A stretch of DNA of 64,000 bases from Escallonia rubra (lineage: Eukaryota > Streptophyta > Magnoliopsida > Escalloniales > Escalloniaceae): contig JAVXUO010000884.1 of the NCBI GenBank assembly GCA_033065855.1, positions 248,001-312,000 on the forward strand. Direction: 5' to 3'. The position numbers were made by a program, and so were the translations under genes. The notes beneath the pieces are model-generated. The model was not told the origin of the DNA. It made no database searches and was given only the letters and a program-made list of their open reading frames with translations. Positions 16,183 to 64,000 of the stretch are shown one piece after another. Every line of letters starts with the position of its first letter. Within the stretch, counting starts at the first letter, position 1.

Positions 16183-18430
16183 ATGAGCTCTGGAGAGAAA
16201 AACGATTTGGGTTCCTGCGACTTTGCTTCCATCCTAGCCGAGAGAAACAACCCTGACCATCCCCCATATCTCATGTACCTAATCCCCACAGTGGTCGGCG
16301 ATGGTTCTCTCCAGGCTTCTCTGTCGGAAGGCTCGCACCTTCACCCTCCCCCTCGCCCTGATCCCCCACCAGCTCCATGTTTAACAGGTAAATTTTGGGA
16401 TAACCCAGGCAGTGAAGACAACCTTTTTGAGGAGACCCCAGAAACCATCTCTGTAACTCGTCCTGCGGATGGCTCTAAATACAGGGTAACAACCGCCCAT
16501 AACATTGATGGCTCGCCCATTAATGGAGGCGAGAAAATCTCCAAGAAAAATAAGAAGGTCCACCTACTGAGTGGGATGGTAGGTACTCTGGCAATTACTG
16601 ATCCAGTCACTAGAGAAGAAATCATGGTGGATTCTGCTACTACATAAACAGGACAGCTGGAAACAAAACAACAAGACAAGGCCCTAGAACAGGATACAGA
16701 TATGTTTCCCCCTCTCGAAACAAACACAGCACACTGCAAGACTTCAGAATCTTCCATCCCCAAATCCTACCGTGATGTTGTCTTCAAGAACCAAGACGAA
16801 AATGCGGTATACTTTATAGAAAATGATGAAGATGTCCTTGAAGATATGGTTCCTGAAGAATCAATAGTTAATACCAATTTGAGCATACCAGAAGTCAAGC
16901 TTCCTGAAGCCATGATCCAACAAATTCGTGCTCAGTGGAAAGACAGCCTTATAGTCAAATTACTGGGTAAAAGTATCGGATTCAGAGCTCTATCTACACG
17001 GCTTAAAGCTCTTTGGGATCTAAATGGTGATTTTGATATGATCGATCTAGATGATGGATTCTTTCTTATTAAGTTTGATTCTAGAACTGATGCGGAGCAT
17101 GCACTTAACGGAGGGCCGTGGATTATTCTTAGCCACTATCTAACTGTTAGAAGATGGGAACCCAACTTCAAGCCATCAGAAGCCATTAAAACCACTACGG
17201 CAGTTTGGGTCCGGCTACAAAACTCCCAATTGAATATTACAGTGAAAATGTTCTATGTAGAATCGCGATCAAGCTTGGCCGACCGATTAAAGTTGATTTT
17301 AGCACAGCCACTTCGATCAGGGGAAAATACGCGAGAATTTGTATCGAAATCGATCTTTCCAAACCCCTAATACCAGCTTACATTCTGGCAGGGAAAGAAT
17401 ACAAGGTTGAATATGAGTTCTTGCCGGCAATTTGCTTTGATTGTGGCAAAGTGGGTCACCGGAAAGACAACTGTACTCAACGATCGGAAACCAGCGCACC
17501 GGTGCATCACAACGTCGCCCAAGATAGAACACTAACAAAGGATAACGGTAACCTGCAAGAACCAAACGGAAACACCAACGTCCAAATCCCAGGAAATATG
17601 GCTCAGTCACTGCTGAAACCAATTATGGTGAATGGATAGTGGTGAAGAGGAGGTCTATACGGTCCATGCAAAAGAAATACACAGATAACCCCTCTACGGG
17701 CCTAAGAAAAAACCAAGATAGCCAGGCCCTTTTGGCTAAACCAGCTTCAGCCCGTAACAATCGCTTTCAGGCGCGTGACTCCCTGGTCCAGTCGCCACAG
17801 TCATCCCTGGCCCAACAGGAACCTCTTGTTCGAGCCCAAACCAGAAACTCCAAGAATCAAACAGAAAAAACCAAATCGTTGGTAGCCCAACCAAATTCTC
17901 ACTCGACCCACATAGGCATCAGCATAGCAGCTCCAACCCTCCCCATGACGGTTGACGCAATTCCTTCTAAAATTTCTGGGGCAATCTCAACCACCAAACC
18001 AAACCACACCTCCAAAACCAACCTGAACCTTCCATCTCCTTTAGAGCCGCCGCCCCAGCTTAAACCTACTAGCTACAGCCCCTCTAACCCGAGTATTACC
18101 GCACCTCCGATAAAGACCAACCTTGTTAATGAGCCCCTAAGCCTTCATCCACCTACCCCAGAAAAACCCCCTGATCCCTTTCTCATTTCCCTAAGGCCAA
18201 ATGACTCATATCCAAGTCAAGAAGCTAGAATTTTGCGGAGTGGAATTGAAGGGAACAATAAGGGAAGATCTACTCCTATTCACGGAAACGGAGGCCTTTA
18301 TCGAGCAATTTCGGATGATTCTTATGCCAGATCGGTGGACAGAAGTAGAAGCCCCACTCGAGGTACGATTATCAGCGTTAACACATCCGGTTCTAGGGAG
18401 GAAGAGAGTAGAAGGTTTCTTCAAAGGTAA
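16183..18430 (+). pseudogene. L1 ORF1: DUF4283 and CCHC zinc knuckle protein
   Basis: The reading starts at ATG 16183, meets an in-frame stop at 16645-16647, and continues in the same frame through a DUF4283 domain (LLGKSIGFRALSTRLKALW, NGGPWII). It shifts frame near 17205-17216 and reads KLPIEYYSENVLCRIAIKLG and the knuckle CFDCGKVGHRKDNC. It shifts again just before 17640 and ends with a Ser/Pro-rich tail at the TAA at 18428. Family ORF1 proteins bind the element RNA. One stop and two frameshifts are the visible lesions. ORF2's natural start lies 41 nt after this stop. Confidence 0.85.
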
Positions 18431-18470
18431 AGCCCCTCTTCCTCTGGATATTTTTCTCCACAAGCACTCA

Positions 18471-21400
18471 ATGGCTACCCTTATATGGAACACTAGAGGT
18501 ACGGGCAACAAAAAATTTAGGCGCCATTTCCACCAGCTTGCTCAACAATTCAAATTTCAGATGGTGGCCTTGATGGAAACTAAAGTTTGCTTCGGTTCTA
18601 TGGGAGATTTCTTTGAACAATTTGGTCTCACATCCACGGCTGTTGTCGATCCGAATGGCAGAGCAGGTGGTATTTGGGTCCTATGGAACCCCGAGCAAAT
18701 CTCTGTGACCCCTCTTCAACTTCACAATCAAGTGGTTCACTTGGAAATCAGGAAAACTAACTTCGAAAATTGGGTGTTTTCGACAGTGTACGGAAACCCC
18801 CAAATCAACAAGAGAGCTGAACTGTGGGAAAATCTTTCTGATTTTGCCGAAGCAGTTCCTACCCCCTGGTTTCTCGCAGGAGATTTTAACGATTACATGG
18901 GACCTAACGAACGGCAAAGCTACACTCCCTTCAATGATTTCCAGAGATGTCAACATTTTTGCGACAATATCAATAGCTGTGGGTTGATGGACATTGGCTG
19001 TCGAGGGCCTAAACTCATTTGGGATAATGGTCGTCACGGGCTTGCCAACACAAAGGAGAGGCTGGATCGTGCTTTGGCAAATTCTGATTGGCGTCTTCAA
19101 TTCCCGGAGGCCACCATCACCAATATTCCTCGTATGTACTCTGACCACTGCCCTATGATTTTGCATGTTAATGGTATTGATAATTTTAGAAATAGAATTA
19201 AACCTTTCCGCATGGAAGCTATGTGGATCGAACACCAGGATTTTAGAAATATTGTTGTTAAAGCCTGGGGTAATAATGCCTCTCTCAACACTGCAAAAAA
19301 TAACTTCAGACCTTTAGCTTTTGAATGGAATAAAAATACTTTTGGAAATCTCTTCAGGAGAAAGAGATGTATTATCGCTAGACTTAATGGTATTCAATCC
19401 GCGTTATCTAATCACTTTAGTTTCAACCTTGATAAGCTGGATAGAGATCTTAAAAGGGAACTTGATTCTATTCTTGATCAAGAAGAAATTTTCTGGAAAC
19501 AAAAGTCTAGGGATGATAATCTCAGACTTAGGGAAAAGAACACTAAATACTTCCATATAACTACGCTTAAAAGAAGGAAAAGAAATAGAATTGAAAGGCT
19601 CAAAAAGGAGAACGGTTCTTGGACTGATGACCCTGCTGAGATTAAGGATATTATAACTTCCCATTTTCAGAATATCTTCCTTAATAGGAGCCCTACTTCT
19701 ACCTATAGTAACTGGCAAAGCTCTGCCTTTTTCACCCAGGATCAGAAAGAGGCCCTTACTGCTTCTATTGAGGACTTTGAGATCAAAAGTGTTGTTGAAA
19801 ATATTAAAGCTAATAAAGCTCCGGGCCCTGACGGGATACCTTCCCTTCTCTACCATAAATTCTGGGATATCATGGGTTCTTCCACCTGTAGCTATGTTAA
19901 AAGTTGTTTTCAAAATAAAAAGCTTCCCCCTGCTGATAAAGATGTCCTTATCTCGCTTATACCCAAAGTTGATTTCCCGAAAAAAATAAACCAATTCCAT
20001 CCCATTAGCTTGTTTAATGTGAACTATAAGGTCATCACTAAAATCATAGTCAACAGACTTCGTCCCTTCCTTGAAGACATCATCAGCCCCTTTCAGAGTA
20101 GCTTCCTTCCTGATAGACACACCATTGACAATATATTTATTACACAGGAAATAATCCACTCGTTATCTCTTAAAAAAGGTAAACAAGGAGGTATGATCTG
20201 GAAAATAGACCTCGAAAAAGCCTATGACAAAATTAAATGGTGCTTCATTTGAAAAACCTTACATGAATTTCAATTCCCTCAAAATCTTATTGATCTTATA
20301 ATGGACTGTATTGTGGGTAATAATTTAAATTTCATTTGGAATGGGGAGATCACTGAGAGTATCACCCCCGAGAGAGGTATTAGACAAGGAGACCCCCTGT
20401 TGCCCTATATTTTTGTTTTGTGCATGGAGAGACTTGGTAATCTTATAATTCCTAAAACCAGGGCCAATCTTTGGAATGGTCTTAAGGCTTCCCCTCATGG
20501 TCCTGCCATCTCGTACCTTTTTTACGCCGATGATCTTATGCTTTTTGCTAAAGCGGACAAGAAGAACTGTACTCACATGATAGAAACGATCACCAAGTTC
20601 TGTGATGAATCTGGGCTTAATATAAATTCGGGCAAATCTAAGATTTTTGTGTCGACTAATATTCCTAGACATGTTGCGTTAGAGATTAATATCCCGCTCA
20701 CTCAGAATCTGGGAAATTACCTTGGAATGCCCCTTATCCATGATAAAATGTCTAAAAATCATTTCTCTCACGTTATAGAAAGAGTGCAAAAAAGACTTGC
20801 CAGCTGGAAGTCTAAGCTGCTCTCCCTCAATGGTAGAGTCACCCTTATTAAAGCGGTCATTTCTGCCCTGCCGACCTATGCTATGCAAACCATGTCCTTC
20901 CCCATAGCTACCTGTCAAATGTTGGACAAAATTAATAGGAATTTCTTAAGGGTTGACACTGAAAATACTAAGAAAATTCATCTAATCAATTGGGACACTG
21001 TTTGCAGACCCATTAGCCTGGGAGGATTAGGTATTCGGAAGACCAGGAACAACAACCTTGCTATGCTTTCCAAGCTTGGCTGGAATATCGTCAAAAATGC
21101 TCCTAAAACCTGGGTTGAAGTCCTAAAAAGTAAGTATAAAATCCCTAACAATCCCAGGCTTTGGAAAAAAGGGAAAAGAACTTCACATATTTGGAGGGGC
21201 GTCATTAGTACCAAAGATTGGTTAGTCAAAGGAACTAAATGGGTGATTGGTAATGGCAATACTACCTCGTTGTGGGATGATTGGTGGTGCGGACCTAGCC
21301 CCCTAAATGCTGAAAATAGAAGAGGTAATGAAGAAACTAGAGTGAGTAGCATTATCATACGGAACAATTGGCACCTGGACAGAATTCGAAGCTCCTTGGA

Positions 21401-22562
21401 TAATGAAGAAATTGAAGTCATATGTAATACCCCCATCCCCTGCTTTAGGTCCTTCCAGGACTCTCCTAGCTGGGGTTACTCCGGCAATGGAGCCTTCTCT
21501 ACCAAAGCTTTCTATAAGCTTATGACTGAGCTCCCTGATTCTAGCTCCCACATCCTTCCTGCCAAATAGAAAAGACTTTGGTGCCTTCATCTACCTCAAA
21601 AAATCATAGGTTTCTTGTGGCTTGCTCTCCATGACAGACTCTTGACCAATAATTTGAGGAAAATCAGATGTCTTACTACTGACAACACTTGTCCCAAATG
21701 CAATCGTTATGAGGAATCAACCATCCATGTGCTCTGGAACTGTGTCTTTGCTGGCAAAGTTTGGAAACATTTCCTAAGCATCCAACAGATTCAAGACCTC
21801 CAAAATTTAGATATTACTCAATGGTTTTGGAAGGGTTTTGATCTCGAGGCTAACTCTAACCAAGAAGGGAATTGGGGAACTATTTTTATATCTATATTGT
21901 GGACTAATTGGAAATGCAGGAATCGTAAAGTCTTTGATAACAAAGACTGCTCCACAGAGGAAGCTATCTTCATCAGCAAAAACCTAGCAAGGGAAGTCAC
22001 TAACGCCTTTCACAAAAACTCAAATGCCCCAAAACCAAAAATTTCCAGACTAATCAAATGGCATTTTCCAATGACAGGTTTTGTTAAAATCAACACCGAT
22101 GAAGCTTCAAGAGGTAATCATGGGCAAAGCGGGTACGGAGGAATTGCTAGAGATGATAGAGGCTACTGGATTGAAGGTTTCTTTGGAAGTATTGGCAAGA
22201 ACTCAAGTCTTAACGCGGAAGTTTGGGGCATCCATCGAGGCTTAATAACTATTCGTGACAGAAACTAGAGGCAGACAACCCTTGAATCAGACTCGACCGC
22301 TGCTCTCACCTTGATAAAGACACAAGAAATTCAAAATCACCCATTGCGTGCGCTTGTAGAAGACTGTCGGGAAATTATAGCCCACACGGAATGCGTGCTG
22401 ACACACACCATGAAGGAAGGCAACAAATGTGCCGATTACCTAGCAAACCTGGGAGCAAGCCAAGGAGAAGCTTACGTCCATCTTGCAGAGGCTCCCACTG
22501 ATCTGGGAAGCCTGCTTGTTGCGGATATGATTGGAGTGGCCTTCGAAAGGCTCCAAAACTAA
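18471..22562 (+). pseudogene. L1 ORF2: endonuclease, reverse transcriptase, zf-RVT, RNase H
   Basis: The start ATG 18471 (MATLIWNTRG) is the usual opening of plant L1 ORF2. Domains in order: APE endonuclease (GDFND ~residue 137, ERLDRAL, SDHCPMIL); reverse transcriptase (APGPDGIP, GIRQGDPL, FYADD ~residue 685); zf-RVT (LWLALHDRLLTN, CPKCNRYEESTIHVLWNC); and an Ac-like RNase H with NTDEAS, NAEVWG, ESDS and CADYLA, so its acidic residues are present. The whole 4.1 kb stays in one frame. Only three in-frame stops break it: TGA 20250-20252, TAG 21567-21569 and TAG 22266-22268. This suggests a fairly young copy inactivated by point mutation. Confidence 0.93.
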
Positions 22563-38589: not shown

Positions 38590-41298
38590 TATGTGAAGTT
38601 GACTTCAAAATATACATTTCGCTTAGCACAACCAGTTCGGTAATGGCCTCTCCCATGACAATAAGCACAAGTTCTTTGTTTCTTTTCTTCTTTCGCCAAT
38701 TCAATAGAAGATTTCAACCTAGTAGCAACCTTTGGGCGTTCTTTGGTCTTAACAAGGGCAGCAGGGTCACGTATAGAAATCTAATGCATACTTTCCATTT
38801 GAGAAACGCATGTACTTGAACAAACTTGACTAACCATTTTGTCGCCAACAAGTTTCTCCACGTTGTTTCTCGCAGCTTGTTTTTTCAAGAAGCTACTAAG
38901 CCATGCATCAATCTCACTTATTTCTAAAGGAAAATTTCTTCCATTATCTATTGCCTTTGAAAACTTTGCTCGAACAGACCATAACGTTAAAAGGCTTATT
39001 CCCTTTTCAGTTGAATGTCCCCCGATCTTGTGCATTCGATCGCTAACATCTTCTACCTTATACCGAGCATGAATTATCAACCTAGGCAAAATGCAGTACT
39101 CATGAAGATCAATTATTTTCTTTTTCTATAAAGGATATGCTTGCATAATATTCCTGCTGTCTCAAACTTAGCACATGAAGAAGTAGCCTTAACACTTTCT
39201 GATGAATAATATTGAACTGTTCACCATTTCTCTTTATCAACAGTTATCAGACCCACCTTGTACCTTGTGACGTCGGGTTCCTTACTCAATGTTATGTGTG
39301 AACAACTAATACTAGCATTCCATTCTTTCTTGAAGATCTCAAACAAACTACGAGTATAGCATTCCCCAACTCTTACTTTAATCGGATGATCAGATGATAA
39401 GACTGCTCTTGAATTCATGGTCTTAAAATCTTCATCTTCCTCAGCATACCTTCGATTATAAACTGCTTTGTCATATTTCACAACAAACTCATTCAACATG
39501 GTATTAGAATTCACATACCCGTCAAATAATGAATGTATGCTTTCACTTCGTCCACTCGTGGTCATGCCAGCAAAAAAAGTATATTTGAAAAAAGGCTTTG
39601 CCCAATGTGCACGTAGGTTGTACATATTTTGAATCCACCAATTTTCTTTTAACTTATACTTGTCATTCAAATCCACCCAACTGGCCTCAAAATCTTCAAC
39701 AGTCTGACTTTTTGTCCAGTTGCTATGGGCTTCATCAAAGTCATCGTAACGGGATCGCAATGGTTGTAGATGCTCCATGACGTGCTTCTTAATGTGCCAT
39801 GCACAAAAACGATGTCGCGTATTTGGAAACACTTTTGCAATTGCATTTCTCATTGCTTCATCTTGGTCAATGATGATTGCAGTCGGGGGCCTTTCAAACA
39901 TGCAATGCAAAAAATGATCAAACAACCACACAAATGTTGCCTTTGTCTCATCCTCCAGCAATGCCGCTCCAAACAATACAGATTGCCAGTGGTGGTTTAC
40001 TCCAACAAATGGAGCAAATGGCATCCTAAATTTGTTAGTCATGTAAGTCACATCAAATACAATAATATCACCAAACTGTGCATACGATGCCCTTGACCTT
40101 CTGTCAGCCCAAAAAACACTTCTGAGAGAACCATCCATAACTAAATCCACAGCAAAATAATAATTGTCATCCAATGTGGCTTTTTCTCAAAAATGTTTAA
40201 TAATCCCATAACATTCTTTCCCCACGTTATTTTTTCTTTCGATGCGTATAATGCTAGAACATTGTCTTGGGGTTACGTCAGCTTCTTCGTTGGGCTTGAT
40301 CACATTCACAACCCTAGTAATCTGATAAGCTTTCAGGCCCTCGTGGTTAAGGTCAGACACTAGAGACTTACATATGTTTGTACGATGATACTTACTATGA
40401 GAACGATGCTTGATTACCTTTGATGGAGTTGTAGTGAAAGGATGGTTATGAACATCTTGGAACTTGTCGACAACCCACACTCCAAGCTTCTTTGACAAAG
40501 TAACTTGCGTCATCGCTTCGCAACCAGTTCTCAACTCCCTACGCCTTTTTCATTCACATTCGGTCTCTTGTCATCCAATTTCGTAAAGCCCTCATTATTG
40601 CACACAAATTGCCTCCCCGTGGCCCTAATCTTATGCGCATTGTGTTTGCAAGTACCAAAACCATTTAAAAGAGCATACTGATTGTAGAACTCATATGTCG
40701 CTTCCAGTGTATCAAATATTTGTCCATCTATTTGTTGGCTATCAAAATTTTCATAGTCCTCGTTCTTTCTGGGCGTTCTAACTTCATTATCACATTGCGA
40801 AAGATCACAAACATCATCTACCCTAGGTTCATCACGAGCGTGAGTATCAGGAATAGCATAATCAATCAAACCTTTGGTCGCATCAATTTCCTCAATCGAC
40901 TGAAAACTTTGAGAAGCCATTGGTGTCCTTCCACTATGAGTCATGTAATTACACTGAGATCTGGTAGGGGAAGACAACACAAGAAGTGGTTGATTCATAT
41001 AATTACACTGAGGCATGTAATTGTTTGTGAGGGTAACTGGTAGTTGGGAATTGGGTGAGGTAGTGCTTGGTCTGGTTGCGTCAAAATCTAGCACCACTAG
41101 TGTTGCTTGGCTCTGTGAAGTGGCCAGCGGCAGTGCAGGGTTTCTATAAGGAGGCGATGGCTTGTGATGGTGGGCGTGGGGGTCGTGGGAAGAAGAAGCA
41201 TGTTCCAGCGATGGTGGCTGCGGTGGCTGTGGTGGCTTGTGACGGTGGAAGGTGGAAGGCGGGTTTCTGCTTTGGAGATGATGGGTGTGATGGTGCAA
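38590..41298 (-). pseudogene. FAR1/MURA-type MULE transposase, broken
   Basis: Minus strand, from inside the right TIR. A His/Pro-rich N terminus leads to a FAR1 DNA-binding domain (GQIFDTLEATYEFYNQYALL; VWVVDKFQDVHNHPF). The MULE catalytic domain has FDVTYMTNKFRMPFAPFVG, IIDQDEAM, CAWH and SGRSESIHSLFDGY. A SWIM remnant reads SSCAKFETAGILCKH, and a C-terminal knuckle reads CAYCHGRGHYRTGC (~38665). Catalytic D, D and E positions are present. Lesions: a frameshift near 40533, in-frame TGA codons at 40187-40189 and 39221-39223, and at least one frameshift between the SWIM region and 39089. The sequence differs clearly from the intact transposase at 55057, so it is another MULE lineage. Confidence 0.9.
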
Positions 41299-52129: not shown

Positions 52130-52399
52130 TATATATATACCTATATGTATATATAGATACATTATATATATACACCTATATACATATATATATACCTATA
52201 TACATATATGTATATATATATATATATATGTATACATATATGTATATATATATATATGTGTGTGTGTGTATATATATATACACCTATATACATATATATA
52301 TATACCTATATATATGTGTATATATATGTATGTATATAGGTATAAATATGTATATGTACCTATATAGGTATAAATATGTATATGTACCTATATATATAT
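51765..52399. repeat. (TA)n microsatellite tract
   Basis: Long alternating TA with interspersed cacctgtata, tatacctata and cacaca units, broken by a 145-bp palindromic element at 51828-51972 and ending exactly at the large MULE. Open frames here are Tyr/Ile low-complexity artefacts. Confidence 0.9.
51828..51972. mobile_element. 145-bp palindromic MITE inside (TA)n
   Basis: The whole element folds back on itself. The left end is GGGTCGTGATCC and the right end, complemented, is GGGAGCTGATCC. Inside are TTGCTAGCGCTAGCA arms and two copies of CCGTCCGCTA...TAGCGGACG, each itself a palindrome, around a short ataattca centre. (TA)n continues on both sides, so the target was the microsatellite and no distinct duplication can be seen. 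The layout resembles microsatellite-targeting MITEs such as rice Micron; family identity is not claimed. Confidence 0.8.
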
Positions 52400-54690
52400 G
52401 GGGGCCGATCCCCATCGACCGGTGGGAAAAATCTTATTTTCCCACCGAATTGCTGCTCTAAGCAGCGATTGTATAAAATTGCAAAAAGTCAATCTCAACA
52501 AAGAGTTGTGATTGGAATTATTGGAGAAAAAATCCCAATCGCAACTCTTTCATGCGATTGGGTTTTTCCCTTTTTTCCTCCCACGTGCACGGCTGGTCAA
52601 CAATCACGGCCGTGGCCCCCACCCCTCATCCCCCCAATCGCAAGTCTTTCTTGCGATTTTACTTTTTGTCCTTTTTTTCCAATCACGGCTTCCCCCTCGT
52701 GGCCCCCACCCCTCCTCCCCCCCACCCTTCCTTCCCCTCCCCCCCCCCCCCGTGGCCCCCACCCCTCATTTCCCCCGTCCTTTTTTTTTGTGTGCATTCG
52801 GGCACATAATTTTCCTGAAAGAGAAAGAGAAAAGGCCCCACCCCATTGTCCTTCCCCTCCCCCCCCCCCCCCCGTGATGCCCCCTTCCCCCCACGCGTCA
52901 TTTCCCCCCCTCCCCCCACCCCCACGTGTCATTTCCCCCTCCCCCCACCCTACTGCTCACTCACGGGAAACTTTGAGAAACTGTGTCTTCTTTCTTCTTT
53001 TTCTCTCTATAAAATCCCTTCTCCCCGAACCATTTCTTCCAATCTCCTCATTCTCCATATCTCACCTACATAATCTCCACAACAATACAGACAAAAAAAA
53101 TTTACGCTAGAAGAACGGTGGATAACCGCTAGAAGATTGGTGGATTTTTCGTCATTTTTTTCAAGTCAAAACAAGTAAGTATTTTGAATTTTCTTATAAT
53201 TCAATGTTAATTTCAAATTGTTCTTACCAATTGATTGTTTAAATTATGTTACGCTTAAATTGTTCTTACCATAGTCTAAAATTCGTGTTTAGGGCGTCAA
53301 AATTACGTTTTTACAAATCGGGGTATTACATTCGAAAGATTCGAAAATAGCGATTTTTTAGGGCGTCAAAATTAGGATTTTTCACGAATTATAAAAAATA
53401 GCTAGAGCTAGATTTTGCCAAAGTGCAAAAAAGAGACCTTAGTTATTTTTAAAAGATCTGTATCAGGTAAAAATTTCAGATTTTTCCAAAGACTGGTGGA
53501 AACGGGTAAACTGATACGCGCAACCTTGTAACTTTGTAGTGTAATTTAAAATATCAAGCTAGCGCGATTTTGCGCGAAACTTTTTGGAGAACCCTAGGAT
53601 GTTGGGAAGTTCCATTTCCTAGGAATTCGGACCATTCCGAAGCCGGTAGCAATTTTTTTGCCGAACGGGCTTTTAAGCGCTCGATCCGGACACCGGTTCG
53701 TGATTTTTGGACGAAAAATCCGTAAAATACTTTTTAGATTAAGAATGAACTCAGGAAGCTTAAAATAGCATTTTAAAGCACTTTTAAGATTTTTCCTGAT
53801 GCCAGGGGCATTTTGGTAATTTGTCGCCCCGAGAGGGGTATTTTGGTAATTTTACGGTGTCAAGTTTTTCAAATGACTTTTCAGTCCAGAAATGTAAGCA
53901 AAGCACCTAAAATGCTGATTTGAAGCCGATTCGCAGGGAATAAATGTCGCTAAAGGTGAAAACTTAATTAGACAATTTTTCACGAATTTATAAAAAATAG
54001 CTAGAGCTAGATTTTGCCAAAGTGCAAAACAAGACCCTGGTTATTTCTAAAAGATACGTATCAGGTAAAAATTTCAGATTTTTCCAAAGACTGGAAAGGG
54101 GTTAACTGATACGCGCAACCTTGCAACTTCGCAGTGTAATTTAAAATATCAAGCTAGCGCGATTTCGCCCGAAACTTTTTTGAGAACCCTAGAATGTTGG
54201 GAAGTTCCATTCCAAATGAATTCGGGCCATTCTGAAGCTGTTAGCAATTTTTTTGCTGAACGGGCTTTTTACGCGCTCGATCCGGACACTGGTTCGGGAT
54301 TTTTGGGTGAAACTTCTGTAAAATACTTTTTACATCACGAATCAGTTCAGGAACCTTAAAATAGCATCTTAAAGCACTTTTGAGATTTTTCTTAATGCCA
54401 GGGGGCATTTTGGTAATTCGCCGCCCCGAGAGGGGTATTTTGGTAATTTTACGGTGTCAAGTTTTTCAAACGACTTTTCAGTCCGTAAATGTAAGCACAG
54501 CACCTGAAATGCTGATTTGAAGCTGATTCGCGGGGCGTTGGGGTCATAATGAACCCCGGGCCATTTCGGTAATTTGTCGCTCATCGGGGGCTATTTTCCT
54601 AATTTTACATTACACAACTTTCCCGAATGACTTTTAGTTCAGGAAAGGGTGTGAGACACCCGAAAAGTTATTTTAAACTTGTGATTTCAG
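52400..54690 (+). repeat. Left TIR (~2.3 kb) of the large MULE
   Basis: Outer part: hairpin ggtgggaaaa/ttttcccacc at ~52421-52446, then C-rich DNA with repeated gtggcccccacccctc and cacgcgtcatttcccc words. The middle part is a promoter and leader. The inner part contains two tandem units of ~599 bp (gctagagctagattttgcc at 53401 and 54000), plus a partial third starting near 54731 outside the arm. The shared units include gccaggggcattttggtaatt and gagaggggtattttggtaat. Confidence 0.88.
53008..53174 (+). promoter_or_regulatory. TIR promoter and 5' leader exon of the transposase
   Basis: TATAAAA at 53008-53014 is followed ~25-35 bp later by the presumed start of a C/A-rich leader. The leader ends at 53174 before the consensus donor gtaagt (53175-53180). 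A pyrimidine-A-rich acceptor (gatttcag, AG at 55048-55049) precedes the transposase ATG at 55057, giving a 5'UTR intron of ~1.87 kb. Splicing is inferred from sequence. Confidence 0.65.
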
Positions 54691-55056
54691 GAAGCTTAAA
54701 AGTCGTTTGAAAAAACTATTCAGCTTTTCTGATGCCAGGGGCATTTTGGTAATTCGCATTCCCGAGAGGGGTATTTTCGTTATTTTGCCCCTTTTAGTTT
54801 TTCAAATGACTGCTTAGTCCAGAAATGTAAGCAAAGCACCTGAAAGGTTGTTTTGAAGTTGATTTGGGGCGTTAGGGTGATAATGAACCCCCGGGGGCAT
54901 TTCGGTAATTTGCCGCTCATCGGGGGCTATTTTGGTAATTTTATATTATACAAATTTTCCAACAATTACGTTTAAATAATTTTTATTCTTCTTTTATTTA
55001 ATTCTATGACTTGTTGAGAATGATATAATTTTTATTTTATAGATTTCAGTATAAAT

Positions 55057-57363
55057 ATGGATGCAACTGGAGGAAGCAATTTTTGTGAAGGTTCTGATCC
55101 ACCTTACTTGGGTCAAGTTTTTCAAACACTGGACGAAGTTGAAGCATACTACAGAGCATATTCAAAAATGATGGGTGTCGGTATTAGAACTAAGACGACT
55201 AGAAAATGGGTGAATACAGATCAAATTTGTGCAAGACTATTTGAGTGTCATAGAGGAGCACCGCATGTACCCCCGATCGTTCAGATCAGTGACGAAGGGA
55301 CAACAAGACAAAGAAAACGCGACACATTTCCGGGTACTGGCTGCAAGGCCCATGTGTATGCAGTACACCGAAAAAATGAAAACCATTGGGTTGTGACGGG
55401 AGTGGAGTTAAGTCATAATCATCAGTTAATGACCCCTAGTAAGATTGGTCAAATTCATCAACACCGAGAAATTAGCGCAGCACACAGACAACTGATTTTT
55501 ACAATGGCCGGGGCTAAAATTCCACCTTCTAAGATGATGGGGGTTTTCTCAAGCCAGGCTGGGGGGATTGACAAGTTGAGTTTCAACAAAGTAGACATTC
55601 GAAATGAACTTCGTGCTCAGAAGAGAGAGTCTTTCGGTAGGAGTGATTCTCAAGCTACACTTGATCTCTTCAGGTGCCTTCAGAGTGAGAATTCTGGATT
55701 TTTCTACAGTCTCCAACTGGATGATGAGAACCGCATTAATACTATATTTTGGGCGGACCCCCGTTCTAGAGCTGCTTACCAAAATTTTGGGGATGTTGTG
55801 ACGTTTGACACCACATACCGCACCAATAAGTACTTTATGCCTTTTGCTCCGTTCACCGGGGTGAACCACCACTATCAGTCAATCTCGTTTGGCTTTGCCC
55901 TGCTTAGGGATGAGACGAAGGAGTCATTTACGTGGTTATTTGAAACATGGCTTCAAGCAATGTATCATATTCCTCCAAAGACCATCATCACCGACCAAGA
56001 TCTGGCAATGAAAAATGCAATCGCTAAGGTCCTTCCAGATACTCACCATGGCCTGTGCACGTGGCACATAAGCAACAAATATCCCGAACGGCTTCACAAT
56101 GTATATGCAAACCATCCGGAATTCAAGACTGGCTTTAATACATGTGTGAAGAAATCGTTGACGGTAGACGTGTTCGAGGAGAGGTGGGCCACGTTAATGG
56201 ATGACTACTATTTGCATAATCATGACTGGTTACAATCGTTGTATGCTATCAAGACACAGTGGGTCGGTGCCTACACCAAGAAGTTTTTTGCAGCCGGAAT
56301 GACTAGGACCTCGAGAAGCGAAGCTATGAATTCATTCTTTGATGGGTACGTAAGCCAGTCTTCAAGTATAGTGGAGTTCGTACTAGAGATGCAGAAAGCC
56401 GTTGATAGGCAATTGTACCGTGAGAGAGAAGTCGACGCGGCTACAGTTTACAGAGAAAGAGCCATACTACTCTTTTCACCTTTGGAGGCTCATGCGGCTC
56501 AAGTCTATACCAAGGAAATGTTTATACAGTTTCAAGATAAACTACTAAAGTCGAATCAATATGGCATAACAAAGTTGCACGAGTATTCCACCAGAGATCT
56601 CAAGGTTTATGCTTTGACAAACGTGACGAATTTCGCCAATCCGTGCTCTTCGTCGACTCCGAGGAACAGAAGACATTTTACCGTGGCTAAATGTATGGAC
56701 ACCGGGTTGGTAAATTGCAACTGTCAATTGTTTGAGCATAAATGCATACTTTGTCGACACGCGTTGAGGATTTTGAGCTCCAAGAATGCTCGTGAAATCC
56801 CTCCACAGTATATCTTGGAACGGTGGATGAAGGAAGCCAATAGAGTCCACGGTCACATTCCTTACGTGCCCAATGTTTCAGTTGATTTCGAGCAATCTGA
56901 GCCGCTGCGATATAATCACATTTGTAACATCATGCACGGTTTATCATTGGATGCAGCATCAACATTTGATGGGTACAGGTATCAAGTTGAAGCAGCCGCA
57001 CGGGATAAGGCTAAGCATGCACAGTTTAGGATGGCTGATCCAGAAAGACGGGACACTCCGACTACTCGGATGACTCCAGCCGGTAGATTCAATCGAGCCA
57101 AACAGCCAGTCATTGACGGCACTAGCATGCAAGGTGAGGTGGACGACATTTTTGATCCAATTATTTCTCAAACAAAAGGGCGAAAACGAGAAATATGCAT
57201 AAAGAATCCGATTGAAAAAGCAACGGGTCAAAAAAAATTACGAAAGTGTGCGTTGTGTAATAAGATGACTGATCATGACAAGAGAAACCATTATAAAGTG
57301 TTAGGTCTCGCACCTGACAGTATGGTCGAGGATGACGATGATGATGATGATGATGAGTGTTAG
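55057..57363 (+). CDS. FAR1/MURA-type MULE transposase, intact (768 aa)
   Basis: One uninterrupted frame, MDATGGSNF to EDDDDDDDDEC. FAR1-type DNA-binding region at ~20-125, with zinc ligands C58, C64, C96 and H120/H122. MULE catalytic domain at ~225-430: D251 in FDTTYRTNKY, D313 in ITDQDLAM, CTWH at 334-337 and E422 in RSEAMNSFFDGY, the expected D-D-E set. SWIM finger at 554-568 (CNC...CRH). A short C-x2-C...H...H cluster near 740 and an Asp-rich tail close the protein. The enzyme would cut and rejoin MULE ends in the nucleus. All key residues are present, so it could be active. It reads from the left TIR promoter and converges on PMD-Ulp1. Confidence 0.95.
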   Translation: MDATGGSNFCEGSDPPYLGQVFQTLDEVEAYYRAYSKMMGVGIRTKTTRKWVNTDQICARLFECHRGAPHVPPIVQISDEGTTRQRKRDTFPGTGCKAHVYAVHRKNENHWVVTGVELSHNHQLMTPSKIGQIHQHREISAAHRQLIFTMAGAKIPPSKMMGVFSSQAGGIDKLSFNKVDIRNELRAQKRESFGRSDSQATLDLFRCLQSENSGFFYSLQLDDENRINTIFWADPRSRAAYQNFGDVVTFDTTYRTNKYFMPFAPFTGVNHHYQSISFGFALLRDETKESFTWLFETWLQAMYHIPPKTIITDQDLAMKNAIAKVLPDTHHGLCTWHISNKYPERLHNVYANHPEFKTGFNTCVKKSLTVDVFEERWATLMDDYYLHNHDWLQSLYAIKTQWVGAYTKKFFAAGMTRTSRSEAMNSFFDGYVSQSSSIVEFVLEMQKAVDRQLYREREVDAATVYRERAILLFSPLEAHAAQVYTKEMFIQFQDKLLKSNQYGITKLHEYSTRDLKVYALTNVTNFANPCSSSTPRNRRHFTVAKCMDTGLVNCNCQLFEHKCILCRHALRILSSKNAREIPPQYILERWMKEANRVHGHIPYVPNVSVDFEQSEPLRYNHICNIMHGLSLDAASTFDGYRYQVEAAARDKAKHAQFRMADPERRDTPTTRMTPAGRFNRAKQPVIDGTSMQGEVDDIFDPIISQTKGRKREICIKNPIEKATGQKKLRKCALCNKMTDHDKRNHYKVLGLAPDSMVEDDDDDDDDEC

Positions 57364-57472
57364 GGTTAATGTTTCAGTTGTATAACGAATAACTTTTATA
57401 ATGTTTAAATTTGTGATTTGGTTTGTTGAATATTTAATTTTTGATTTGGTTTGTGGATTATTGATATTTTTT

Positions 57473-58890
57473 GAAGGGCCTATTCGCGCACATTTTAGCG
57501 CCCAATTCATAGCTTCCGAAAAATCTTGTAAATTTTTTGGTTCATTGCACCTCAGGCACGCTAGTTAGCCCATTCGTAAGAATTTCGGCGAAAAACGAGA
57601 CACGTTATTTTTTGGGTTTTCCTATGAAGGGCCTATTCGGGCACACTTTAGGGCCCAATTCATATCTTCCGAAAAATATTGTAATTTTTACGGAACTTTT
57701 TTTTCGCTCATTGCACCTCAGGCACGCTAGTTAGCCCATTCGTAAGAATTTAGGCGAAAAACGAGACACATTATTTTTTGGGTTTTCCTATGAAGGGCCT
57801 ATTCGGGCACACTTTAGGGCCCAATTCATAGCTTCCGAAAAATGTTGTAATTTTTTTTTGTCACTTTTTTTTAGCTCATTGCACCTCAGGCACGCTAGTT
57901 AGCCCATTCGTAAGAATTTCGGCGAAAAAAGAGACACGTTATTATTTGGGTTTTCCTATGAAGGGCCTATTTGGGCACACTTTAGGGCCCAATTCATAGC
58001 TTCCGAAAAATCTTGTAATTTTTTTTGTCACTTTTTTTTCGCTCATTGCACCTCAGGCATGCTAGTTAGCCCATTTGTAAGAATTTTGGCAAAAAACGAG
58101 ACACGTTATTATTTGGGTTTTCCTATGAAGGGCCTATTCGGACACACTTTAGGGCCCAATTCATAGCTTCCGAAAAATCTTGTAATTTTTTTTTGTCACT
58201 TTTTTTTCGCTCATTGCACCTCAGGCACGCTAGTTAGCCCATTCGTAAGAATTTTGGCGAAAAACGAGACACGTTATTTTTTGGGTTTTCCTATGAAGGG
58301 CCTATTCGGGAACACTTTAGGGCCCAATTCATAACTTCCGAAAAATGTTGTAATTTTTTTGTCACTTTTTTTTTTCACTCATTGCACCTCAGGCACGCTA
58401 GTTAGACCATTCGTAAGAATTTTGGCAACAAACGAGACACGTTATTTTTTGGGTTTTCCTATGAAGGGCCTATTCGGGCACACTTTAGGGCCCAATTCAT
58501 AGCTTCCGAAAAATCTTGTAATTTTTTTTGTCACTTTTTTTTCCCTCATTGCACCTCAGGCACGCTAGTTAGCCCATTCGTAAGAATTTCGGCGAAAAAC
58601 GAGACACTTTATTTTTTGGGTTTCCAATGAAAGGCCTATTCGCGCACACTTTATCGCCCAATTCATAGCTTCCGAAAAATCTTGTAATTTTTTTTGTCAT
58701 TTATTTTTTGCTCATTGCCCCTTAGGCACGCTAATAGGCCATTTCTATGAATTTCAGCGAAAATCGAGACAAATAATATATTTAGTTTTCCTATAAAAGG
58801 CATATTCGCGCACACTTTATCGCCAAATTCATAGCTTGCGAAAATACATGTACATTTTTTTAAGGGGTTCTTTGCTCATTGCACCTTAGT
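57473..58890. repeat. ~167-bp tandem array between the two MULE genes
   Basis: Nine units recur at gggcctattcg (about 57478, 57631, 57797, 57965, 58132, 58300, 58468, 58634 and, as ggcatattcg, 58800), with spacings 153 then 166-168. Each unit has cccaattcatagcttccg, ttgcacctcaggcacgctag and aacgagacacgttatt words. Inner units are most alike; outer ones are diverged. The last unit's cacgctagtt word overlaps the stop codon of PMD-Ulp1. Confidence 0.92.
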
Positions 58891-58894
58891 CACG

Positions 58895-61765
58895 CTAGTT
58901 AGGATAATGGTAATGAAGGCATCTAGCTTCATTCTTTTTCAGCTCCCAGGCTATCCTATACCTAAACGTCAAGGCAGCCTTCCTAGTCCATGACGTATAT
59001 CTGAGCACCTCCGAGCGAGCAATGTAGTCCATGTACTTGAGGACGTAAATCCCGCAATCGTGACTGTTATATTGCTTTGGTCGGTCCTGTATCATCACGA
59101 CCATCCAAGGCTCTACCGTCGAATTCCTGGTGATGGAATCCCCCGAATAATCTCGGCACACTAGCGAGAAGATAGTAGTCTGCATCCAACAATTAAAAAT
59201 GTCATCAAGCCTATGTTACGATAAGAATATACTATGAGCCAAGGTCAACCGATAAAAACTAACCACTGCAGTGATGTACTCGCTATACATCTGTGCCAGC
59301 GACCGCCCAGGAGAGTCCTCCCTTAGGCTATCGTATATGTTGACCTGTCTGTTCGCTGGATGGAGAACTAATAGGAACCAGTGGTTTTCATGATGGCAAG
59401 GTATCATGACAAGGTTCGCATGAGCAGCGTGACATTGATAGTCTGCGTTCAACAGGCCTAATACGTTTCCACCTGGTTTCCACTTACCCTTGCCTGCCCC
59501 TCGCCTCCTCCATTCTGTTAACTCCCTCATGCTGGTCACCATTAATGTGACAAAGTAAGTGGGATACATGTTAAGCTTCAAATCTTCGCACTGGTTATAA
59601 CGGAGCTCTATAATCCGGAGCAGATCTATATAAGCATTCATGATAAAATTTGAAATATCTGTCTCCGATGCCAACATTCTCACATCCGCGTGACCTAGCA
59701 ATGTTCCAAGAGGATAGTCTGTTGAATCGACAGGCTCAGGCCCGAAGTAGTGCCGGTCGATCCAATCCCACTTCCACTGCCTCAATGGCTTTGTCGCTTG
59801 TCTTTTATCTGACCGGATGCTTGGGCGCGAGGCCTGGATTCCTACTTGGGTCACCTGACTCTGGCGCTGAGAGTCGTACGTGTCAGGAGGCAAGCGAATA
59901 GACGGCTCCCAGAATTCCTTCTGGGGCAAAGACGCGTCAGGAGGCAAGCGACTAGACAACTCCCACACCACACTCTGGGGCACAGAGTCGTACGCGTCAG
60001 GAGGCAAGCGACTAGACGGCTCCCCCAGGCCCTGACTCTGGGGCTGAGAGCCGTACGCGTCAGGAGGCAAGCGACTAGACGGCTCCCCTTGGTAACCCCG
60101 GTACGCAACACTAAAGTTGTGAAGATCAGTCTTGTACCTCTCAATGGAGCTCTTGAGACTGTCAGGCGCATGCGCGACATACCAGTCAAACCGCTCGAGC
60201 TGCTTGAACACCTCAGTGCCCTGGTCAACCTAAAAAACATGCATAGAAAAATCACCGTCATCATTTCAGGCATGGTCGAGAAGGTGCGCAAATAAATATT
60301 GAAACAACACTAGGTTGACTTACAATGTTCAATGCCCAGAACTGGTCATAGACCTCACGTGGCGCATACGATTTGGTCCTCACTTAGGAAGGGCGATTCA
60401 CCCTCATGCGCGTCACCTTGAGAAACCATTGCAGGTACTCCTCAGTACTGGTGCCGTCGTCCTTGGGCGATACAAGGCTACCATACGTTTCTTGCCAAGT
60501 ATTCCACTGTTGCACCTCGTCGCTCAGCAAATTCAAGGCATCAGGTACCTCAAAATTCGGACCTCGACCGCTCCTGTATGGCCACATGTCTACAGCGGGT
60601 TTTGGTATCCCTTGTAGACAGCCAGCTTGTTTCATAGCTCGATCGGGCATCTGAAACTCACATACTTCGAAGTGAATAAGTGGCACCCGAACCAAACCTG
60701 CCAACACGTACGACACCGGAAGTTGCCAACACAACTCATCCAACCGATGCATCACCTTCCCATATGGCTGCCACGTCACCTGGGATGTATCCATCATATC
60801 TAGTTCCCCCCGATAGAACATTAGATGGTGGTGAGGGTCTACCCGTCTCCTCCGTTTGGTCGTAGGCCCCCAGGCCCACACCCTAGGCCACGTCTCATCG
60901 AAATCAGCTACGGGCTGTGGACGACCCGTGGGTAGCCTCTCGTAAGACCAAACCTGTGAATGCAAACATTATATGGAATTAGTAATTAATCACGAATATA
61001 TTGACACGTCAACCAAGAATATAAATGCTCAAACCTGTAACAGAGTGATGCAGGCGGCAATGGACTTCGCACCCTTTCTCGTAGCTTTGTGCAATGCTCG
61101 ATATAGGTGCGCAAGGACAGCTGAACCCCACGAATACGAGTATACCTCCTCAAGATCCTCCAAGAACACCATATACTTCGGATGCACCGTGTTTTTTTTT
61201 GCGTCGGAAGTAATATAGATCCAGTAATATACAAAAGGAATGCCTTCGTATACGTCTCCAAATCATGAGGAGTGTATTCATCCGGTAGCTCGCCGTACTG
61301 CTCTCTTAGCCATTTAAGTTTTATGCCGTTGGTTGTAAGAGCGTCCCTCGGAATTCTCAGAAAATACTGCCTAGCCATCTTCGCTATGGATGCAGACGTT
61401 TTACTCGAAGTAATGGGTCTGTCGTGACATGGGATTCCAAGTATAAATCTGACGTCCTCTAATGTAATAGTCATTTCACCAAACCGGAAGTGAAATGAGT
61501 TCGTCTCGCCCCTCCATCGTTCAACTAGAGCGGATATAAGGCAATCGTCGTGCCGAGACCAAATCCCGCAATCGGTGAACACCATCAAATTTTGACGGTG
61601 TAATAGTTGTATTTGTTCCTCGTTCAGTACCCACTCGTCGAGGTGACTTGTGCTTTGAATTGTTTCCAAAACACCCCTATCGACACCGTCAAATACGTGC
61701 CTCGCGACGTGGTCATCGTCATCGTATAGGATTGATGTATCATGAGGTCCAGGGTTGAAATCCAT
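58895..61765 (-). CDS. Plant mobile domain-Ulp1 (C48) protease fusion, four exons, two lesions
   Basis: Exons: 61035-61765, 60324-60953, 59264-60229, 58895-59179. All borders are GT-AG and junctions phase 0. Exons 1-2 encode a plant mobile domain (LISALVERWRGETNSFHF, GEMTITLEDVRFILGIP, YSWGSAVLAHLYRAL, LLQ|VWSYERLPTGRP). Exon 3 has a Pro/Ser-rich repeat linker, then the Ulp1 fold with the His of HHENHWFLLVLHP and Asp of NIYDSL. Exon 4 has the Cys of HDCGIYVLKYMD. The His-Asp-Cys triad is complete, so SUMO/ubiquitin-like cleavage is the family expectation. Lesions: a frameshift in an A9 run (plus-strand T-run 61192-61200) and a TAA at 60384-60386 followed by 20 more coherent codons to the donor. 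The length is one base short of a full frame. The substrate is unknown. Confidence 0.85.
59884..60087 (-). repeat. Four short repeats in the PMD-Ulp1 linker
   Basis: Units starting at caggaggcaagcga (59884, 59938, 59998, 60061) are 54-63 nt apart and in frame. They encode EPSSRLPPDAY-type units of 18-21 residues separated by Gln/Ser-rich spacers. All spacings are multiples of three, so copy-number change would not break the frame. Confidence 0.88.
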
Positions 61766-61767
61766 AT

Positions 61768-63674
61768 CTGTAAGAATAAAATATAATCGTAAACCAACTT
61801 AGCGTCCATAATATTTACATTCCAAAACTGTAACTGAATCGTTAACCTAGCTTACCAACGCATTAGCAATAGTCATTAAATCATTATTTTAATGTATTAA
61901 AATCATTCCTCACTTCCCACCACTACGAACGCTTAATAACGCTAGTTCCCTAAAATTTAGCGCCAACGTGATTATTTAGCAATATACCCCTTTCGATGGC
62001 CGCTACACCCCCAACACTTCAAAACCGCTTTAAAACCACTTTTTAAATGTATTACATCAATTATATACCAAATATTTCCTCAGAATATTTTAAGGGGGAA
62101 AGTTACCAAAACACTCCCAACTTATGCAAAATACCCTGTGGCAGTCATCGCCCCAACAAACATCTCATTCATAAGTTTAAAATAACTTTTCGGGTGTCTC
62201 ACACCCTTTCCTAAACTAAAAGTCATTCGAGAAAGTTGTGTAATGTAAAATTAGGAAAATAGCCCCCGATGAGCGGCAAATTATCGAAATGGCCCGGGGT
62301 TCATTATGACCCCAACGCCCCGCGAATCGGCTTCAAATCAGCATTTCAGGTGTTGTGCTTACATTTACGGACTGAAAAGTCGTTTGAAAAACTTGACACC
62401 GTAAAATTACCAAAATACCCCTCTCGGGGCAGCGAATTACCAAAATGCCCCCTGGCATCAAGAAAAATCTCAAAAGTGCTTTAAGATGCTATTTTAAGGT
62501 TCCTGAACTGATTCGTGATGTAAAAAGTATTTTACGGAAGTTTCGCCCAAAAATCTCGAAACGGTGTCCGGATCGAGCGCGTAAAAGCTCGTTCGGCAAA
62601 AAAATTGCTAACGGCTTCGGAATGGCCCAAATTCCTGGGGAATGGAACTTCCCAACATCCTAGGGTTCTCAAAAAAGTTTCGCGCGAAATCGCGCTAGCT
62701 TGATATTTTAAATTACACTGCGAAGTTACAAGGTTGCGTGTATCAGTTAACCCCTTTCCAGTCTTTGGAAAAATCTGAAATTTTTACCTGATACGTATCT
62801 TTTAGAAATAACCAGGGTCTCTTTTTTACACTTTGGCAAAATCTACCTCTAGCTATTTTTTATAAATTCGTGAAAAACTATCTAATTAAGTTTTCACCTT
62901 TAGCGACATTTATTCCCCACGAATTGGCTTCAAATCAGCATTTCAGGTGCTTTGCTTACATTTCTGGACAGAAAAGTCGTTTGAAAACTTGACACCGTAA
63001 AATTACCAAAATACCCCTCTCGGGGCGGCAAATTACCAAAATGCCCCTGGCATCAGGAAAAATCTTAAAAGTGCTTTAAAATGCTATTTTAAGCTTCCTG
63101 AGTTCATTCTTCATCTAAAAAGTATTTTACGGATTTTTCGTCCAAAAATCCCGAACCGGTGTCTGGATCGAGCGCTTAAAAGCCCGTTCGGCAAAACAAT
63201 TGCTACCGGCTTTGGAATGGCCCGAATTCCTGAGAAATGGAACTTCCCAACATCCTAGGGCTCTCAAAAAAGTTTCGCGCGAAATCGCGCTAGCTTGATA
63301 TTTTAAATTACACTGCAAAATTACAAGGTTGCGCGTATCAGTTTACCCGTTTCCAGTCTTTGGAAAAATCTGAAATTGTTACCTGATACAGATCTTTTAA
63401 AAATAACTAGGGTCTCTTTTTTGCACTTTGGCAAAATCTAGCTCTAGCTATTTTTTATAATTCGTGAAAAATCCTAATTTTGACGCCCTAAAAAATCGCT
63501 ATTTTCGAATATTTCGAATGTAATACCCCGATTTGTAAAAACGTAATTTTGACGCCCTAAACACGAATTTTAGACTATGGTAAGAACAATTTAAGCGTAA
63601 CACAATTTAAACAATCAATTGGTAAGAACAATTTGAAATTAACATTGAATTATAAGAAAATTCAAAATACTTAC
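61768..63674 (-). other. Probable 5'UTR intron of PMD-Ulp1
   Basis: Minus-strand donor gtaagt (63669-63674) mirrors that of the transposase gene. The acceptor ttattcttacag (AG at 61768-61769) lies just before AT-ATG at 61765. It covers the unique stretch 61766-62172 and the inner part of the right TIR. No other gene was seen here. Confidence 0.55.
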
Positions 63675-64000
63675 TTGTTTTGACTTGAAAAAAATGACGA
63701 AAAATCCACCGATCTTCTAGCGGTTATCCACCGTTCTTCTAGCATAAAATTGTTTTGTTTGTATTGTTGTGGAGATTATGTAGGTGAGATATGGAGAATG
63801 AGGAGATTGGAAGAAATGGTTCGGGGAGAAGGGATTTTATAGAGAGAAAAAGAAGAAAGAAGACACAGTTTCTCAAAGTTTCCCGTGAGTGAGCAGTAGG
63901 GTGGGGGGAGGGGGAAATGACACGTGGGGGTGGGGGGTGGGGGGAGGGGGGGATGACGCGTGAGGGGAAGGGGGGCATCACGGGGGGAAGGACAATGGGG
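62173..64000 (-). repeat. Right TIR of the large MULE (cut by window end)
   Basis: Inverted match to 54690-52841 of the left arm, including both ~600-bp tandem units, the leader exon and the C-rich outer part (here G-rich). Differences are scattered substitutions and homopolymer length changes. The outer ~440 bp and the flank are outside the window. Confidence 0.9.
63675..63841 (-). promoter_or_regulatory. TIR promoter and 5' leader exon of PMD-Ulp1
   Basis: Minus-strand TATAAAA (63835-63841), the same C/A-rich leader and the same donor site as at 53008-53180. The two MULE genes therefore share a duplicated promoter facing inward from each arm, as in maize MuDR. Confidence 0.65.

What the first reader, a model, noticed from the sequence alone, without database searches (positions are those of the whole stretch)
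52400..64000. Near-intact MULE that couples a FAR1 transposase with a plant mobile domain-Ulp1 protease gene
One element carries an uninterrupted 768-aa transposase with D251, D313, E422 and a SWIM finger. It also carries a spliced gene joining a plant mobile domain to a Ulp1/C48 domain with His, Asp and Cys in place. Ulp1-bearing MULEs are established (Kaonashi, CUMULE). The PMD fusion, the long arms and the good state of preservation make this copy a candidate for a recently active system in which a de-SUMOylating enzyme may help the element against silencing. That role is inference.
Basis: partly seen in the sequence, partly recalled or inferred. Interest (0 to 1): 0.88.

Follow-up and report, generated by a model that had tools for sequence, protein, structure and literature searches.

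The report
Jumping gene with SUMO-protease passenger gene
This is a 12-kb plant DNA transposon with its own transposase plus a second gene that fuses a gene-silencing-related plant domain to a SUMO-protease-like enzyme; the second gene is broken in this copy but whole in some sister copies, so it is a real and possibly useful part of the element.

Summary
The element runs 52400-64420 (12,021 bp; right end 420 bp past the window), with ~2.28-kb inverted arms, 96.6% identical, in a (TA)n tract. The 768-aa FAR1/MULE/SWIM transposase is open. The opposite-strand gene has four phase-0 exons coding plant mobile domain (PMD) then Ulp1/C48; here it carries a one-base frameshift and an in-frame TAA, so "near-intact" fails for it. 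Of 35 near-full-length gene copies listed in the genome I read 30: all keep three GT-AG introns, 9 encode an uninterrupted 865-870 aa fusion. Diverged subfamilies (26-40% protein identity) keep PMD before C48 and His/Asp/Gln/Cys. PMD dN/dS is below 1 between subfamilies, C48 not clearly; measured against introns the evidence is mixed. Of 20 copies with a found right end, 19 abut (TA)n, as in MuTAnT/SaTar MULEs. PMD in MULEs, Ulp1 in Jittery-like MULEs and TA-targeting MULEs are each published; my searches found no paper on a fused PMD-Ulp1 gene in such an element. An anti-silencing role is inference.

The parts
52386..52399 (.). left flank, (TA)n tract; its last 9 bases TATATATAT equal the first 9 bases right of the element (TSD-like, but inside a TA repeat)
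52400..54684 (+). left inverted arm, starts GGGGGCCGATCCCC
   Evidence: 2167 matches, 77 mismatches, 49 gap columns against the right arm
53005..53018 (+). CTCTATAAAATCCC, TATA-like site in the left arm, pointing to the transposase (promoter role inferred)
   Evidence: one copy in each arm
55057..57363 (+). transposase, 768 aa, FAR1 + MULE (DDE) + SWIM, open in this copy
57533..58902 (.). 168-bp tandem repeat, about 8 copies, between the 3' ends of the two convergent genes
61035..61765 (-). exon 1 of the PMD-C48 gene (731 nt; a frameshift at the A-run 61192-61200)
60324..60953 (-). exon 2 (rest of PMD); in-frame TAA at 60382-60384 in this copy
59264..60229 (-). exon 3 (repeat-bearing linker and first part of the C48 domain, His and Asp)
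58895..59179 (-). exon 4 (rest of the C48 domain, Gln and Cys)
62169..64000 (-). right inverted arm, cut by the window end; continues to 64420 (L009), ends GGGGATCGGCCCCC and abuts (TA)n
63831..63844 (-). TATA-like site in the right arm, pointing to the PMD-C48 gene (promoter role inferred)

Best explanation
A member of a fairly recently amplified family of FAR1-type (Jittery-like by domain make-up) Mutator-like elements that inserts into (TA)n microsatellites. Shown: inverted arms, an open FAR1/MULE/SWIM transposase, and tail-to-tail with it a four-exon gene for a PMD-C48 (Ulp1) fusion protein that is uninterrupted in 9 of 30 copies read and broken here. Inferred: the transposase cuts and pastes the element, binding the arms through its FAR1 domain; in this copy each arm carries a promoter for one gene; the PMD-C48 protein helps the family in trans, most likely by weakening host silencing of its copies, the PMD steering to or competing with the host MAIN/MAIL pathway and the C48 domain removing SUMO. 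This copy could still supply transposase but not the fusion protein.
For: Anatomy and right end. 35 near-full-length gene matches, the window's included, the other 34 at 95-98% identity (40 of 1166 candidates were scored). 30 of 30 read copies keep GT-AG at all three introns and 9 of 30 are uninterrupted. Spliced product of one whole copy: PMD 234.7 bits, C48 73.0 bits; its C48 part matches human SENP2 at E 3e-8 with His, Asp and Cys aligned. H737, D754, Q812 in 30 of 30 and C818 in 29 of 30 copies. Of the eight C48 loci fetched first (L001-L008, the best-scoring), seven have a PMD segment upstream on the same strand; in L003 only the C48 part was matched. L001, L004 and L006, at 35-40% (PMD) and 26-29% (C48) identity, show the catalytic residues at the aligned places (alignments). 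Transposase and gene lie tail-to-tail, 0.55-1.95 kb apart, in the 16 loci where both were listed within 2 kb. Transposase without stops in 49 of 58 scored copies. dN/dS of the PMD-side part (codons 188-455) 0.29-0.60 in five bootstrapped subfamily pairs, 0 to 2.1% of replicates at 1 or more. (TA)n next to 19 of 20 right ends found, a rule that 0.55% of window positions meet.
Against: C48 dN/dS is 0.59-0.87 in the same five pairs and every bootstrap interval reaches 1. Introns diverge less than synonymous sites in several pairs (for L011-L002 0.054 against 0.169), and against introns dN is not low there: 0.081 for PMD and 0.089 for C48; in other pairs (L011-L008, L007-L008) PMD dN is under half the intron divergence. 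Introns are also less variable than coding sequence among the close copies (0.0090 against 0.0152), where the nonsynonymous/synonymous ratio is neutral or nearly so (0.99 for shared, 0.83 for single variants). 21 of 30 copies are interrupted; one of 30 has lost the Cys, and so has L005. The TATA-like site pointing to the gene was found in only 3 of 27 right-side pieces, of which at least L040 and L044 are too short to show it. A search with the C48 half alone found no relative at E 0.001. No expression, protease or silencing data.
Confidence: 0.55

Rival explanations
1. Passive cargo: a PMD-C48 gene was captured once (transduplication) and rides along without helping the element.
For: Neutral N/S among close copies; weak constraint on C48; dN not below intron divergence in some subfamily pairs; 21 of 30 copies interrupted. 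Ulp1 capture by MULEs is held to be frequent and independent (PMC2528002, section 10).
Against: Order, introns and catalytic residues persist across subfamilies with 26-40% protein identity; PMD dN/dS below 1; 9 uninterrupted copies.
Confidence: 0.3
2. Transposition helper: the fusion protein acts on the transposase or on strand transfer (for example by cutting SUMO from the transposase) and not on silencing, a counterpart of mudrB.
For: Two convergent genes flanked by arms, as MuDR is built (recalled; no call); the pair recurs.
Against: Jittery-type elements are listed with one ORF (PMC6446971 table), so the transposase may work alone; nothing here shows contact between the proteins.
Confidence: 0.25
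3. Nested chance: two unrelated elements or a host gene happen to lie between the arms in this locus.
For: TA-targeted elements often stack end to end (PMC5907723, passages).
Against: The same tail-to-tail pair recurs in 16 loci, this one included; the arms bracket both genes; the 20 right ends found have 19 different sequences after the TA tract.
Confidence: 0.01

Closest known systems
MuTAnT / AutoMuTAnT of Medicago truncatula (PMC4486113, passages seen)
   Same: MULE with a Jittery-like transposase, GGGG/CCCC ends, insertion in (TA)n, 9-nt TSD
   Different: AutoMuTAnT is 4,873 bp with a single ORF; here 12 kb, ~2.28-kb arms and a PMD-C48 gene
SaTar and autonomous AgS/ArS-MULEs of guayule and rice (PMC5907723, passages seen)
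   Same: microsatellite-targeted MULEs that stack end to end; neighbouring element ends in the same TA tract are seen here too
   Different: no PMD or Ulp1 gene in the passages seen
Ulp1-bearing MULEs: Kaonashi of Arabidopsis, CUMULE of melon, grapevine Jittery-like families (PMC2528002 section 10; PMC13317346 and PMC9768921 passages)
   Same: Ulp1/C48 gene next to a MULE transposase, also in Jittery-like elements and also in reverse orientation
   Different: Kaonashi is a non-TIR, mudrA/VANDAL-type MULE; no PMD is mentioned in the parts seen. The first descriptions of Kaonashi and CUMULE were not seen
PMD-bearing MULEs (PMC5418596 section 11; PMC6446971 table 1)
   Same: PMD inside MULEs, often antisense to the transposase (listed for the MUDR, MUDRAVI2, MDR and Solanaceae_1 groups, among others)
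   Different: not listed for the Jittery/FAR1 group; the PMC5418596 cases are PMDs fused with the transposase
PMD-C48 protein of Heracleum sosnowskyi (P0004, 909 aa)
   Same: PMD followed by C48 in one predicted protein; 41% identity over 32% of the query
   Different: known only as a database gene model; genomic setting not seen; the only one of the 120 listed hits (of 521) shown with both domains

Membership tests
Mutator-like element (MULE) | MULE transposase domain with catalytic residues | tested here: met
Mutator-like element (MULE) | long terminal inverted repeats | tested here: met
Mutator-like element (MULE) | 8-11 bp target-site duplication | tested here: inconclusive
   TATATATAT on both sides, but inside a TA repeat
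Jittery-type MULE (group 36 of PMC6446971) | FAR1 domain at the N-terminus and SWIM towards the C-terminus | tested here: met
   SWIM 0.2 bits under cut-off; C/C/C/H invariant in 9 of 9
Jittery-type MULE (group 36 of PMC6446971) | one ORF, arms of 39-292 bp as listed there | tested here: not met
   two genes and ~2.28-kb arms
Jittery-type MULE (group 36 of PMC6446971) | transposase groups with Jittery in a tree | not tested
   no tree with Jittery itself was made
TA-microsatellite-targeted MULE (MuTAnT/SaTar kind) | copies flanked by (TA)n | tested here: met
   19 of 20 right ends found, in 27 pieces fetched; left ends only in the window copy
Kaonashi MULE | no TIRs; VANDAL/mudrA-type transposase | tested here: not met
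   long arms; FAR1-type transposase
Ulp1/SENP protease (C48) | His-Asp-Gln-Cys active site in the C48 domain | tested here: met
   (sequence only; no activity, no structure)
Plant mobile domain protein | Pfam PF10536 over cut-off | tested here: met
Anti-silencing TE protein (VANC-like) | loss of methylation at sister copies when expressed | not testable with these tools
   no expression or methylation data

The most novel reading that the evidence does not exclude
A lineage of TA-targeting FAR1 MULEs has carried, through deep divergence, one fused protein that joins a decoy of the host MAIN/MAIL silencing pathway (PMD) to a SUMO protease, and this fusion is its anti-silencing weapon, independent of VANC.
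Probability: 0.25. Interest if true: 0.8.

Novelty: new variant of a known kind. Interest (0 to 1): 0.5.

Why it matters
PMD proteins take part in transposon silencing in Arabidopsis, and it has been suggested that MULEs turn captured PMDs against silencing (PMC5418596); Ulp1 domains recur in MULEs with unknown function (PMC13317346). A family that fuses the two in one protein, with uninterrupted copies in one genome, gives an object for testing both suggestions at once.

Tried and rejected
The protein search limited to the C48 half (residues 440-870) gave nothing at E 0.001, although 5446 candidates shared words with it. Rfam gave nothing in the window at gathering thresholds. The transposase has no sequence relative in the PDB at 0.001. 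Selection among the 30 close copies looks neutral, so I turned to diverged subfamilies, where the intron comparison partly disagrees with dN/dS. I first took residue 807 for the catalytic Gln; it varies between subfamilies, and the Gln six residues before the Cys (812) is the conserved one. Fractions of broken copies of the two genes are not comparable: one search scored the 58 best of 4651 candidates, another the 40 best of 1166. A count of all PMD hits and of all element ends in the genome was asked for several times and never answered. I did not use structure prediction: the spliced product is not a letter-for-letter translation.
Full report
What is there. Its arms begin at 52400 and, with the continuation L009, end at 64420; length 12,021 bp. 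The arms match over ~2.28 kb with 2167 matches, 77 mismatches and 49 gap columns, and hold an internal repeat of about 560-570 bp. Both flanks are (TA)n; the nine bases on either side are the same, which inside a TA repeat proves little.

The transposase. One open frame of 768 aa (55057-57363) with FAR1, MULE and ZSWIM RNaseH-like domains over cut-off and SWIM 0.2 bits under it. In an alignment of nine sequences, the window's included, D251 and the SWIM ligands are invariant, D313 is kept in 8 of 9, and residue 422 is Glu in six and Asp in three. The best named database relatives are proteins called FAR1-RELATED SEQUENCE 5-like in Daucus and Apium; the best of all is an unnamed 775-aa protein, P0121, at 45%. 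In the own genome 58 copies were scored of 4651 candidates; 49 of 58 have no stop.

The second gene. On the minus strand four phase-0 exons (61765-61035, 60953-60324, 60229-59264, 59179-58895) code PMD, a linker with repeats, and C48. In this copy exon 1 is shifted by one base at an A-run and exon 2 has an in-frame TAA. The run-length difference is shared by four other copies among the 25 of 30 rows that one search printed, so slippage or sequencing error is possible there; the TAA is a separate lesion. The genome search gave 41 matches of the gene (40 of 1166 candidates scored); 35, the window's included, cover it nearly whole, the other 34 at 95-98%. Of the 35 I read 30, the window copy included: all 30 have GT-AG at the three introns, 9 are uninterrupted (L011, L015, L018, L021, L028, L029, L032, L034, L037), 21 are not (the rows of L036 and L038 are cut short at the 3' end by the alignment). 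The product of L011 matches PMD over 72-421 (234.7 bits) and C48 over 650-853 (73.0 bits), and over the PMD part also DUF7745 (32.8 bits, cut-off 26) and DUF1985 (25.3, cut-off 35.1). One Arabidopsis Ulp1 protein is named with DUF1985 in PMC5821449 (passage), so the N-terminal part of such proteins may be of the same stock as PMD; this is a lead only. C48 aligns with SENP2 with His, Asp and Cys in place.

How old and how kept. Median pairwise difference of the 30 gene copies is 1.3%, the least 0.1%. The closest pairs (0.1-0.4%) include L015, L018 and L022, which lie near contig starts, and their flanks were not compared, so duplicated contigs are possible. Among 16 copies with a found right end and their own flank the least difference is 0.49% and the median 1.1%. 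Close copies evolve nearly as neutral sequence. dN/dS of the seven copies outside the main cluster, the window's among them, against three main-cluster copies is 0.50-0.72.

The eight C48 loci fetched first (best-scoring) turned out to be relatives: seven have PMD upstream in the same order, L003 only the C48 part. In pairs among L011 and three of the nearer ones (L002, L007, L008), codons 188-455 (most of PMD and a little beyond; the loci do not reach further upstream) give dN/dS 0.29-0.60 with bootstrap shares at or above 1 of 0 to 2.1%; C48 (codons 640-866) gives 0.59-0.87 with all intervals reaching 1 (further pairs span 0.26-0.60 and 0.44-0.93). Against this stands the intron comparison: intron divergence is 0.054 for L011-L002 and 0.062 for L011-L007, well below PMD dS there, so with introns as standard PMD dN is not low in the first pair (0.081) and about two thirds in the second (0.040); for L011-L008 (0.167) and L007-L008 (0.198) PMD dN is under half of it (0.076, 0.083) while C48 dN is about equal (0.171, 0.190). 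Exons and introns differ in base make-up (by eye), so neither standard is clean. L001, L004 and L006 have stops, yet show the His, the Asp, the Gln and the Cys at the aligned places. One of the 30 close copies has lost the Cys, and L005 has Tyr there. My reading: the fusion is old and its active site kept; constraint on PMD is likely, on the rest of C48 weak or absent.

Pairing. Where a listed transposase and a listed C48 or whole-gene match lie within 2 kb, they are tail-to-tail in 16 of 16 loci, this one included. I picked by eye the contigs that occur in both kinds of list and entered 21; four pairs are far apart and one (C1121) is 5.2 kb apart and diverging, so not one element. C2282, also in both lists, was not entered; its matches lie hundreds of kb apart. 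The lists are capped, so this is a sample. In the seven pairs with the whole gene the gap is 550, 700, 701, 1196, 1201, 1207 and 1531, partly in steps near the 168-bp repeat.

Target. Of 27 right-side pieces fetched, 20 hold the end within five errors; 19 of the 20 abut TA-rich 14-mers (rule: 70% TA/AT steps), which 0.55% of window positions and under 0.01% of positions in L001-L008 satisfy. The one failing piece, L048, has another element's end a few bases on. There are 19 different sequences after the TA tract among the 20. Several copies have a further element end in or beside the same TA tract (L042, L043, L048, L053, L061, by eye), as described for SaTars.

Arms differ. In 19 of the 20 pieces with an end the right arm is short, about 1.5 kb from the gene's start to the end, against 2.66 kb here; L066 is longer. 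The TATA-like site pointing to the gene was found in 3 of 27 pieces, L040 and L044 at least being too short to show it. This speaks against a simple one-promoter-per-arm picture for most copies read.

What is known. Seen in passages or sections: PMDs captured by MULEs and the suggestion of anti-silencing use (PMC5418596, section 11 and passages); PMD fused to protease in plants (PMC7156037, passage); Ulp1 in MuDR-like and Jittery-like MULEs of grapevine and melon (PMC2528002, section 10 and passages); Kaonashi and hypomethylation (PMC13317346, passages); PMD listed in many plant MULE groups, often antisense, but not for the FAR1-bearing Jittery group (PMC6446971, part 1 of section 6 and passages; 'plant mobile' does not occur in its held text, so the abbreviation is taken at face value); TA-targeting Jittery-like MULEs (PMC4486113, passages) and SaTars (PMC5907723, passages); also passages of PMC8616336, PMC9768921 and PMC5240378. 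Searches for plant mobile domain with Ulp1 gave no paper on the fusion in a MULE. The first descriptions of Kaonashi and CUMULE were not seen, PMC1702500 (cited for the PMD) is not held, and most subscription papers are missing, so the claim of novelty is limited to this library.

Reading. A known kind of element in a combination that I did not find described. The mechanism that I think likeliest for the fusion, help against silencing, is inference (about 0.4 by itself); a transposition helper or mere cargo are the alternatives.

Noticed in passing
L009 from about 2421 (window 64421 on): After a (TA)n tract another MULE-like end (GGGAGCTGATCCC...) begins; a similar end lies beside the copy of L061, so TA tracts here seem to collect several element families.
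   Followed up: partly
window 39221-40174, minus: A second MULE transposase fragment (Pfam MULE 106.7 bits), with FAR1-like frames beside it at 40531-41298 (by eye).
   Followed up: partly
window 18201-21566, plus: Non-LTR retrotransposon-like frames: endonuclease and reverse transcriptase domains.
   Followed up: partly
window 57533-58902: 168-bp tandem repeat between the two genes; the gap between the genes differs between copies, partly in steps near that length.
   Followed up: partly
P0003 and P0121: A PMD protein and the nearest transposase relative are both listed from an 'ena' contig of 7311 bases, possibly one related element in another organism.
   Followed up: no
L001, L004, L006: Deeply diverged PMD-C48 genes whose PMD resembles the Escallonia rubra proteins P0001/P0002 (by eye); the host may be a campanulid.
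   Followed up: no
introns of the PMD-C48 gene, 61034-60954, 60323-60230, 59263-59180: The introns vary less than the exons among close copies and less than synonymous sites in several subfamily pairs; unexplained.
   Followed up: no
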